Positions 3,429-5,614 of a stretch of 39,575 nucleotides of DNA are shown here, one piece after another. Each line of letters opens with the position of its first letter. The stretch's first letter is position 1. The translations under genes were made by a program, and so were the position numbers. This stretch comes from Gloeomargarita lithophora Alchichica-D10. Lineage in GTDB: Bacteria; Cyanobacteriota; Cyanobacteriia; Gloeomargaritales; Gloeomargaritaceae. The stretch is from assembly GCF_001870225.1 (NCBI RefSeq), contig NZ_CP017675.1, forward strand, positions 1,693,372 to 1,732,946, given 5' to 3'. The notes under the pieces are model-generated. The model was not told the DNA's origin. It saw nothing but the letters and a program-made list of their open reading frames with translations, and searched no databases.

Positions 3429-3432
3429 TTGG

Positions 3433-3470
3433 GCAGGAGTGAAAAGTATATTTACGTTTCCTGCAATTTT
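3433..3470 (+). terminator. possible weak terminator after serA
   Basis: GCAGGA at 3433-3438 can pair with TCCTGC at 3459-3464, with partial inner pairing of GTGAAA with TTTAC, and four T follow at 3467-3470. The loop is large and the stem short, so this is only a plausible rho-independent terminator for serA. Confidence 0.35.
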
Positions 3471-3531
3471 CAAATATAATAAAGACTAAGCGTCAGGCGC
3501 ATTCTTAGATACTAAAACTCATCTAAAGCAA

Positions 3532-3756
3532 ATGGAAATTCAAGAATTAAAGGCGTTAATCAAAGAAAGCATCCGAGAAGTTCTACGAGAAGAGCGGCTT
3601 CTGCTCTGTAAATCTCTTGTTCCTTACATCTCTAACGAAGAGCAAGCAGAAATAGAAGCTGAATTTGGTTCTCCCTCAGACTATAAAGCTGAGGAACTTG
3701 TTGACATGACACATTGGGTTAAATATGGCAGTCAAATTTCGCAAGGAAGCAATTAA
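3532..3756 (+). CDS. putative antitoxin of a RelE-type toxin-antitoxin pair
   Basis: This 74-residue protein is small, acidic and predicted helical: an N-terminal ELKALIKESIREVLREERLLL helix, then SNEEQAEIEAEFG. It precedes a RelE/ParE-like gene whose start overlaps its 3' end by 32 bases, the usual arrangement for a type II antitoxin translated ahead of its toxin. In such systems the antitoxin binds and neutralises the toxin and often represses the shared promoter. The antitoxin family cannot be named with certainty, and no DNA-binding motif is obvious. The pair is AT-rich compared with serA, consistent with acquisition by transfer. Confidence 0.72.
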   Translation: MEIQELKALIKESIREVLREERLLLCKSLVPYISNEEQAEIEAEFGSPSDYKAEELVDMTHWVKYGSQISQGSN

Positions 3757-4003
3757 GTTTTTGCAGAAGGCATTCCCTGAAGATGTTGCCAGAATTCAAG
3801 CTCAACTCAATCAGCTTCTTATCGCTGTTGAAGAGCAAGGCATCATTCCATTTATTGATCTAGATATTAAGAAAATGAAGGGGAAATGGGAGGGATTTTA
3901 TCGGCTTCGAGTTGGCAAAATTAGAGTTATCTTTGCACTAAGTACTGATTCCGATAGCATTGAAGTCATCACAATTGGAGCTAGAGGAGATGTGTACAAG
4001 TAG
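3725..4003 (+). CDS. RelE/ParE family toxin
   Basis: This 92-residue protein has the RelE-superfamily layout: an N-terminal helix pair (FRKEAIKFLQKAFPEDVARIQ), then IKKMKGKWEGFYRLRVGKIRVIFAL, the signature in which the toxin's basic strand carries the compact R-L-R-V-G-K-I-R-V motif, and a C-terminal strand ending EVITIGARGDVYK. RelE toxins of this type cut mRNA in the ribosome, while ParE members inhibit gyrase; the sequence does not decide between them. It lies 3' of and overlaps the antitoxin gene, so the two are almost certainly co-translated. Confidence 0.82.
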   Translation: MAVKFRKEAIKFLQKAFPEDVARIQAQLNQLLIAVEEQGIIPFIDLDIKKMKGKWEGFYRLRVGKIRVIFALSTDSDSIEVITIGARGDVYK

Positions 4004-4022
4004 AGTTTTAAATCTGACAAAT

Positions 4023-4110
4023 GCATAACAACCGCACTGCACCAGAACTTTCTAAACCATTTGATTCAATTGTTATCTTACTTGATGTCCGGTGAGTTCA
4101 ACCGTTGGGT
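4023..4110 (+). other. attC-like imperfect inverted repeat downstream of the toxin gene
   Basis: An 88-base segment begins with GCATAAC (4023-4029) and ends with GTTGGGT (4104-4110), which resemble the RYYYAAC and GTTRRRY core sites of integron attC recombination sites. Between them CAACCG (4029-4034) and CACCAG (4040-4045) can pair with CCGTTG (4102-4107) and CCGGTG (4089-4094), each with one mismatch, giving a long interrupted hairpin. Its position just after a small toxin-antitoxin cassette fits the integron-cassette layout. The left core deviates from consensus at one position and no integrase is in the window, so this is tentative. Confidence 0.35.
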
Positions 4111-4213
4111 TGTTGCAAATATTGGTGAAGGTAAGATTTCAAAACAACCCGTGGGGGTTCAGAGTTTAATTGAGATTAAAATATGGGCATGACTTGGTGT
4201 TTTGCGAGAAGCT

Positions 4214-4459
4214 ATGCAATCAATTGAGCAACTGACGAAGGAAATTCTATCCCTACCAAGCGTATCAAGGGCACTCCTGGCAGAAAAACTTGTGGAAAGC
4301 TTGGAATTTGACACTGACTCAACCATTCAGGTGGCTTGGGTAACTGAGGCCAAAAGGCGCAGAGATATAGTGCGGAATGGGAGCATAACGCCGATTCCTG
4401 GAGAAGAAGCTTTGGCTCAGGTTAGGTCTCTGCGACCTATTTTTAGAGATGTCCTTTAA
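4214..4459 (+). CDS. addiction-module component (TIGR02574-type) antitoxin, orphan, 3' end altered
   Basis: From the ATG at 4214 the protein is 81 residues (a TTG at 4202 would add four). It matches the TIGR02574 addiction-module family: SVSRALLAEKLVESLE near the N-terminus, then VTEAKRRRDIVRNG and IPGEEALAQVR. Family members normally sit directly upstream of a RelE-like toxin. Here there is no toxin, because the next gene is convergent on the minus strand. The final codons (RSLRPIFRDVL) are encoded by the right-hand end of the dispersed MITE-like repeat (CTGCGACCTATTTTTAGAG, seen again near 28.06 kb). The gene therefore seems to have lost its natural 3' end and partner. Confidence 0.62.
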   Translation: MQSIEQLTKEILSLPSVSRALLAEKLVESLEFDTDSTIQVAWVTEAKRRRDIVRNGSITPIPGEEALAQVRSLRPIFRDVL

Positions 4460-4460
4460 T
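4426..4460 (+). repeat. right end of the dispersed MITE-like element
   Basis: The sequence CTGCGACCTATTTTTAGAG followed by ATGTCCTT matches the right end of the fullest copy near 28.06 kb with few differences. Only the end is present. It overlaps the last codons and stop of the orphan antitoxin gene. Confidence 0.6.
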
Positions 4461-5540
4461 TCACTGCTGATCACCAAACCATTTTTGGTACAGGGTGGCA
4501 TAGGTGCCATCCTCCTGAATTTGCAATAATGCTTTGTTAATCGGTTCCCGGTAGGGGCTACCGTTGGGTAGGGCGATGGCGTAGCTCTCTTTCTGGAAAA
4601 CCGACCCCACCAGCATCATCCGCCCCCGACCGGCATTGGCGGTATAGTGCAGCAACACCGGCGCATCAAACACCACCGCCTCCACCCGACCTTCAGTCAG
4701 AGCGGTATAGGCTTCATCAATAACTTTGACCGCCAGGACATCGGCTCGTTGATTTTGCAGATAGGTAGCCGCCGTACTACCCACCGTGGTGGCGACCCGT
4801 TTCCCCGGCAAATCCTCCGGCCCACGGATGCCCCCTTGCAGTTGCTGAACGGTCAGGGAAGTGGTTACCGTGGCCGTAAAGTAGGCCACAAAGACCACGC
4901 TGGTCAACATTGCCCCCAGGGCAATAATGCGCCCCCAGGGACTTTTGGGCATCTCATCCGCCTGCGCCGAGAGGGTAGCCGCCGCCCACCAACAGGCTTT
5001 GAAAATACCCGGAATATACCCTTGTCCCTCAATAATTCCCCCCGGCTTGCGTTCCAAAAAATAGATAATATGGGCGGGCACCAAAATCAAGATCAACATC
5101 AACCCCAGCAGTTGCCCCAAGGCCGGGGAAAGCAAGAGCGTGAGTAAGCCCAGGCCAGAATTATCCGGCTTGGCTCGAACCATAATCGCCAAACCCGAAT
5201 CAAAAATAGGATGGGAAAAATCAAAATCCCGCTCCCGCACCGCCGTCACGGAAATGGCCGCTACCCCCACATCCGCCCGTTTTTCCCGCAGGGATTGGAG
5301 CAAATTCTGCACATTGGCTTGCACTTGAAATTCGGATTGTTTGCCCAAACGCGCCGCCACCTGTTGCCACAGGTCAATGCTAAACCCCGTCAACTGCTGA
5401 TTGGATTCCTGGATTACAAAAGGCGGAATCAACCGGGTCGAAACCCGCAGTGAAGCGGTCGTTTGTGCCATCCCCGGCGTGGCAATCGCCAGCACCGTCA
5501 CCACACCCAAAACCCACTGCCGCACCACCCGCTGACGCAT
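4461..5540 (-). CDS. ionotropic glutamate-receptor-like ligand-gated channel (GluR0-type architecture)
   Basis: A signal peptide ending near AQT is followed by a periplasmic-binding S1 half carrying the ligand-carboxylate Arg in VRERDFDFSHP. Next come a membrane helix (LLGLMLILILVPAHIIYFLE), a re-entrant pore segment (ACWWAAATLSAQADEMP), a second helix ending in FTATVTTSLTV, and the S2 half with the conserved acidic residue in AVVFDAPVL. This S1-M1-P-M2-S2 order is that of bacterial glutamate receptor GluR0. Unlike GluR0 the pore lacks the potassium filter TVGYG; SAQADEMPKSPWGRI looks more like animal receptor pores. I chose ATG 5540 (AAGG six bases upstream) over ATG 5591, which has no ribosome binding site. 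The ligand is unknown. Confidence 0.85.
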   Translation of the reverse strand: MRQRVVRQWVLGVVTVLAIATPGMAQTTASLRVSTRLIPPFVIQESNQQLTGFSIDLWQQVAARLGKQSEFQVQANVQNLLQSLREKRADVGVAAISVTAVRERDFDFSHPIFDSGLAIMVRAKPDNSGLGLLTLLLSPALGQLLGLMLILILVPAHIIYFLERKPGGIIEGQGYIPGIFKACWWAAATLSAQADEMPKSPWGRIIALGAMLTSVVFVAYFTATVTTSLTVQQLQGGIRGPEDLPGKRVATTVGSTAATYLQNQRADVLAVKVIDEAYTALTEGRVEAVVFDAPVLLHYTANAGRGRMMLVGSVFQKESYAIALPNGSPYREPINKALLQIQEDGTYATLYQKWFGDQQ

Positions 5541-5614
5541 AGAAACCCTTACACCATCATTAGCCGCTATCGTCCCATATTCTTGCCTCATCCAGGGAGT
5601 GACCCACCGAAAAC

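What the first reader, a model, noticed from the sequence alone, without database searches (positions are those of the whole stretch)
4925..5000. Glutamate-receptor-like channel whose pore lacks the potassium filter and resembles animal receptors
GluR0 of Synechocystis has a K+-channel filter (TVGYG). Here the pore loop reads WWAAATLSAQADEMPKSPWGRI. It lacks that filter and shows similarity to the animal pore (QQGCD-x-SPRSLSGRI): a Q before an acidic residue and P-x-S-x-x-GRI at the helix entry. The ligand-binding Arg and acidic residues are intact, so the protein is probably functional. It may represent a bacterial channel with a different ion selectivity and be informative for how animal pores arose.
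Basis: partly seen in the sequence, partly recalled or inferred. Interest (0 to 1): 0.6.

Follow-up and report, generated by a model that had tools for sequence, protein, structure and literature searches.

The report
Bacterial glutamate-receptor channel without potassium filter
The gene encodes a bacterial relative of nerve-cell glutamate receptors whose pore has lost the usual bacterial potassium filter; it belongs to a widespread family that was first listed in 2010 but for which I found no electrical measurements, so it is real and worth testing but not new in kind.

Summary
The minus-strand gene at 4461-5591 encodes a 376-aa prokaryotic ionotropic glutamate receptor: a split amino-acid-binding domain around M1, a re-entrant pore loop and M3. 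The pore reads WWAAATLSAQADEMPKSPWGRI and has no TVGYG. AlphaFold (mean pLDDT 88) and Foldseek put it in the AMPA-receptor LBD-pore fold, so it is not a plain binding protein. The loop is no oddity of this genome. Q210 (67/68) and an acid at 212 (64/68) are conserved across a clade from cyanobacteria, Armatimonadota and proteobacteria. The solved Nostoc 'GluR0' ligand domain (2PYY) is 99% identical to a clade member. Ger et al. 2010 already listed such receptors as 'Group 2'. The likeness to the animal pore is weak: D-x-x-P-x(4)-[GA]R also occurs in K-filter relatives, the Q is in a different register, and the filter is two residues shorter than K-type. With pore columns left out, the clade is single-origin (99/99) and sister to K-filter receptors, away from eukaryotes, suggesting independent loss of the filter; an AU test does not exclude a link to eukaryotes (p 0.17). 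Best reading: an amino-acid-gated cation channel that is not K+-selective. Conductance is untested.

The parts
4461..5591 (-). Ligand-gated channel gene (376 aa; the likely real start is M18 at 5540, with AAGGG about 6 nt upstream and a signal peptide MRQRVVRQWVLGVVTVLAIATPGMA)
   Evidence: ORF; Pfam SBP_bac_3/Lig_chan; start choice and signal peptide are inferred by eye
5175..5453 (-). S1 lobe of the ligand-binding domain (residues 47-139), with binding Arg R119 at 5235-5237
   Evidence: alignment to 2PYY; R119 in 65 of the 66 clade sequences with a residue there
5052..5126 (-). M1 transmembrane helix (residues 156-180)
   Evidence: AlphaFold model
4971..5018 (-). Pore (M2) helix, residues 192-207
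   Evidence: AlphaFold model, pLDDT about 90
4947..4976 (-). Filter segment TLSAQADEMP (residues 206-215) in place of T-x-x-TVGYGDxxP; two residues shorter than K-type
   Evidence: alignment of 63 receptors; conservation
4836..4940 (-). M3 helix with gate-like motif AYFTATVTTSLTVQQL (residues 218-252), counterpart of animal SYTANLAAFLTV
4467..4832 (-). S2 lobe of the ligand-binding domain (residues 254-375), with D309 at 4665-4667

Best explanation
A two-transmembrane prokaryotic ionotropic glutamate receptor of the non-K+ 'Group 2' kind. The periplasmic S1/S2 clamshell binds L-glutamate or a related amino acid (inferred from the 56%-identical solved Nostoc domain). Closure pulls on M1 and M3 and opens an M3 bundle in a presumed tetramer (inferred from AMPA receptors). 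Ions pass a shortened filter whose conserved Q210 and acid 212 replace the GYG carbonyl cage, so the channel is probably a non-selective or divalent-permeable cation channel and not a K+ channel (inferred). The clade most likely arose once from K-filter bacterial receptors by loss of GYG with a two-residue deletion, independently of the animal pore.
For: Pfam domains in channel order. Closest solved chain is 2PYY, E 2e-68, VIA Z 34.2 at 56% identity. AlphaFold shows M1, pore helix and M3 at high confidence, and Foldseek aligns the whole model (365-375 columns) to AMPA receptor LBD-TMD chains. The pore is conserved across a large clade. 2PYY's domain is 99% identical to that of L084, which carries WWAAATLATQADEMPK. 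The tree without pore columns gives one QAD clade, 99/99, next to K-filter receptors, 96/89.
Against: No conductance or assembly data. The query lacks the near-invariant W227 (66/68 have W; here A) and F229, so this copy could be altered. AU tests do not reject grouping QAD with eukaryotes (p 0.17; 0.28 without long rows) or putting all K-filter rows on one side (p 0.28). Selectivity cannot be read from sequence.
Confidence: 0.8

Rival explanations
1. The clade is the prokaryotic stem of eukaryotic (plant/animal) receptors: the K filter was lost once, and the eukaryotic pore descends from a QAD-like pore.
For: Plant GLR3.4 has the same 21-residue W-to-GR pore length, and M3-S2 shows shared residues; Ger et al. 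2010 found Group 2 nearer to human receptors in BLAST; AU p 0.17 for eukaryotes+QAD and 0.116 for plant+QAD.
Against: The best trees put QAD beside K-filter bacterial receptors and eukaryotes elsewhere. Price et al. [quoted passage not shown] The filter register differs from animals.
Confidence: 0.1
2. A binding protein or sensor anchored by two helices, in which the pore no longer conducts (loss of GYG left a non-conducting receptor).
For: The query has lost W227 and F229; a sister subclade (L049, L050, L052, L057, L059) has even lost the S2 acid; databases call relatives 'transporter substrate-binding domain-containing protein'.
Against: Filter residues Q210 and acid 212 are about as conserved as the ligand Arg, which is unexpected for a dead pore; the pore helix is kept in the model.
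Confidence: 0.12
3. It still conducts K+ selectively through a different filter geometry.
For: Nearest relatives are K-filter channels.
Against: The GYG carbonyl motif is deleted, and no K+-selective channel with this motif is known to me.
Confidence: 0.05

Closest known systems
Group 2 prokaryotic iGluRs (Ger et al. 2010, PMC2950845; includes Nostoc/Anabaena proteins)
   Same: Split glutamate-binding domain around two TM helices and a pore loop, no K+ signature, conserved Arg and Asp
   Different: The window's protein is a further member in another genus; Ger's group as listed also contains proteobacterial proteins that may have other filters. I could not fetch Ger's exact accessions.
Nostoc punctiforme 'GluR0' ligand-binding core (PDB 2PYY)
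   Same: 56% identity over the ligand domain; the full-length relative L084 (99% to 2PYY) has the same QADEMP pore
   Different: Only the ligand domain is solved; about half the sequence differs
Synechocystis GluR0 (slr1257) and K-filter cyanobacterial receptors
   Same: Same architecture and topology
   Different: TVGYG or TFGYG filter; the GluR0-like protein L149 is a distant relative (about 25% identity)
Animal AMPA/NMDA receptors and plant GLRs
   Same: Same LBD-M1-P-M3 fold; acid near the filter; YxTA-type M3 motif
   Different: They have M4 and an amino-terminal domain; different filter register and length (GluA2 22, GluN1 23, GLR3.4 21, here 21)

Membership tests
Prokaryotic ionotropic glutamate receptors | S1 and S2 of a family-3 binding protein flanking M1-P-M3 | tested here: met
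   Pfam, AlphaFold topology, Foldseek to AMPA LBD-TMD
Prokaryotic ionotropic glutamate receptors | Ligand Arg in S1 and acid in S2 | tested here: met
   R119 and D309; alignments
Prokaryotic ionotropic glutamate receptors | Tetrameric amino-acid-gated conductance | not testable with these tools
   needs electrophysiology; no tetramer prediction was offered
Group 1 / GluR0-type K+ receptors | T-x-x-TVGYG filter | tested here: not met
   pore TLSAQADEMP
Group 2 (Ger et al. 2010) | iGluR topology without a recognised K+ filter | tested here: met
   definition
Group 2 (Ger et al. 2010) | Same clade as Ger's listed Nostoc/Anabaena proteins | tested here: inconclusive
   many Nostocaceae receptors, including a 99% match to 2PYY, are in the clade, but Ger's accessions themselves were not fetched
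Animal iGluRs | Q/R/N site with acid at +4, SYTANLAAF motif, M4 and amino-terminal domain | tested here: not met
   register differs; motif AYFTATVTTSL; no M4 or ATD in 376 aa
Plain ABC-transporter substrate-binding protein | no membrane pore between the two lobes | tested here: not met
   M1, pore helix and M3 lie between the lobes

The most novel reading that the evidence does not exclude
The QA[DE]xMP clade is a bacterial, non-K+-selective (perhaps Ca2+-permeable) amino-acid-gated channel family that shares an exclusive ancestor with eukaryotic glutamate receptors, so that the eukaryotic pore started from such a shortened filter.
Probability: 0.08. Interest if true: 0.65.

Novelty: new member of a known kind. 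Interest (0 to 1): 0.3.

Why it matters
Reviews of iGluR evolution still use the K+-selective GluR0 as the bacterial model. A large bacterial clade with a conserved, shortened, non-K filter and a solved ligand domain gives small, tractable proteins for asking how a K+ pore became non-selective, even if by a route parallel to that of animals.

Tried and rejected
Plain binding protein without a pore: rejected. Loop unique to this genome: rejected. Animal-specific P-x-S-x-x-GRI: rejected as specific, because K-filter relatives share it. Recent foreign DNA by base composition: the channel gene's GC (about 0.56) matches neighbouring genes, while the adjacent toxin-antitoxin-like stretch is about 0.40, so GC gives no support. 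Direct evolutionary link to plant or animal pores: neither supported nor rejected. No paper in the held library links Gloeomargarita with glutamate receptors. A first try to search around L140 failed because a genome handle was needed; redone.

Full report
Observation. The minus-strand ORF 4461-5591 encodes 376 residues. Pfam finds SBP_bac_3, Lig_chan-Glu_bd and Lig_chan above their cut-offs, and Ion_trans_2 just below. A likely start is M18 (5540), preceded by AAGGG and followed by a typical signal peptide (by eye). The genome has 3,049,282 bases in one contig. From memory this fits Gloeomargarita lithophora Alchichica-D10; this is an inference that no tool confirmed.

Structure. AlphaFold on an alignment of 53 relatives gives mean pLDDT 88, with M1 156-180, pore helix 192-207 and M3 218-252 between the two binding lobes. 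Foldseek aligns the whole model to AMPA receptor ligand-binding and pore regions. The ligand domain matches Nostoc 2PYY (L-glutamate bound) at Z 34.2 and 56% identity.

The loop in its family. Homologues with WWAAATLATQA[DE]EMPK occur across cyanobacteria and in Armatimonadota, Alphaproteobacteria, Burkholderiales and others. In 68 sequences below 90% identity Q210 is kept in 67, an acid at 212 in 64 and P215 in 66, about as strictly as the ligand Arg R119 (65 of the 66 with a residue there). In a sample of 388 Cyanobacteriia genomes, 93 have a match at E <= 1e-25. Of the 97 genes I read, 28 have the QA-type filter, 66 a GYGD or GFGD-type K filter, 1 another (GGAD) and 2 could not be read (my count). 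The solved 2PYY domain is 99% identical to L084, which has the QADEMP pore, so the family already has a crystal structure of its ligand domain.

Comparison of pores. From the pore-helix W to the GR at the M3 entry there are 23 residues in K-type receptors and GluN1, 22 in GluA2, and 21 here and in plant GLR3.4. Position by position the acid (D212) is at W+11 here and W+12 in GluA2, and the conserved Q is at W+9, where GluA2 has its second Q and not the Q/R site. The D-x-x-P-x(4)-[GA]R stretch is shared by K-filter receptors, so it is not an animal signature. M3 (AYFTATVTTSLTV) corresponds to SYTANLAAFLTV. The eukaryotic sequences used are those printed from PDB chains.

Phylogeny. A careful tree without the pore columns (63 rows) puts all 43 QAD receptors in one clade (99/99), beside K-filter cyanobacterial receptors (96/89), with eukaryotes apart (98/91). 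Leaving out long rows keeps the QAD clade (99/98). The simplest reading is that the filter was lost in bacteria, with a two-residue deletion, independently of the eukaryotic loss. The AU tests are not strong enough to exclude eukaryotes+QAD (p 0.17 and 0.28), plant+QAD (p 0.116), eukaryotes+NGG (p 0.27) or one K clade (p 0.28). Price et al. [quoted passage not shown]

Local history. None of the six congeners searched nor the one other family member has the gene. In the nearest congener by dnaN identity (G004, 91%) serA and dnaN lie tail to tail a few bases apart. In the window they are 2.2 kb apart, with a small toxin-antitoxin-like cassette and the channel gene between them. Gain in this lineage is the simplest reading; loss in the others is not excluded. 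The closest row in the main tree is an Armatimonadota MAG (L078, 59% identity, support 82/80); without the long rows, other rows come nearer by path, so the donor is unsettled.

Prior knowledge. Ger et al. 2010 (PMC2950845) defined Group 1 (K filter) and Group 2 (no recognised filter, including Nostoc and Anabaena) and already argued that Group 2 is closer to eukaryotic receptors. Recent papers still use GluR0 as the bacterial model. I found no functional study of a Group 2 channel in the held library. The kind is therefore known; this is a further member.

Mechanism. Shown: sequence, domain order, predicted fold, conservation. Inferred: amino-acid binding (from 2PYY), gating by clamshell closure (from AMPA receptors), tetramer, and non-K+ selectivity (absence of GYG). 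Query-specific changes (W227A, F229L) are a caution about this copy.

Noticed in passing
L153/L140, L160, L158 (Rhodobacteraceae and another genome of the class): Bacterial receptors with pore WWALNLVVNGGFEERVPRSLFGR, which aligns without gaps to GluN1 ([23 protein letters not shown]), including the N-site Asn and an acid. They form their own clade (100/100). More animal-like by eye than the window's pore, but AU p 0.27 leaves any link to eukaryotes open.
   Followed up: partly
L049, L050, L052, L057, L059: A subclade with pore mostly VGQAEEMP whose S2 acid (FDAP) is replaced by AP[RAG]P; possibly paralogues with another ligand.
   Followed up: no
L171: A cyanobacterial receptor with yet another filter, FLVGGADNKGP.
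   Followed up: no
window 3429-5614: 2.2 kb between serA and dnaN that the nearest congener (L142) lacks. It holds a low-GC toxin-antitoxin-like cassette (3532-4003, 4202-4459) and the channel gene.
   Followed up: partly
L060 about 2184-2315 (G002): A 44-aa remnant, 48% identical to the C-terminal end, with two stops; may be a relic of such a channel or of a binding protein.
   Followed up: partly
plasmid records NZ_CP117262.1 and NZ_CP117256.1 (Rhizobium tumorigenes; hits H2 and H3): Family relatives are annotated as 'transporter substrate-binding domain-containing protein', hiding the channel part.
   Followed up: no
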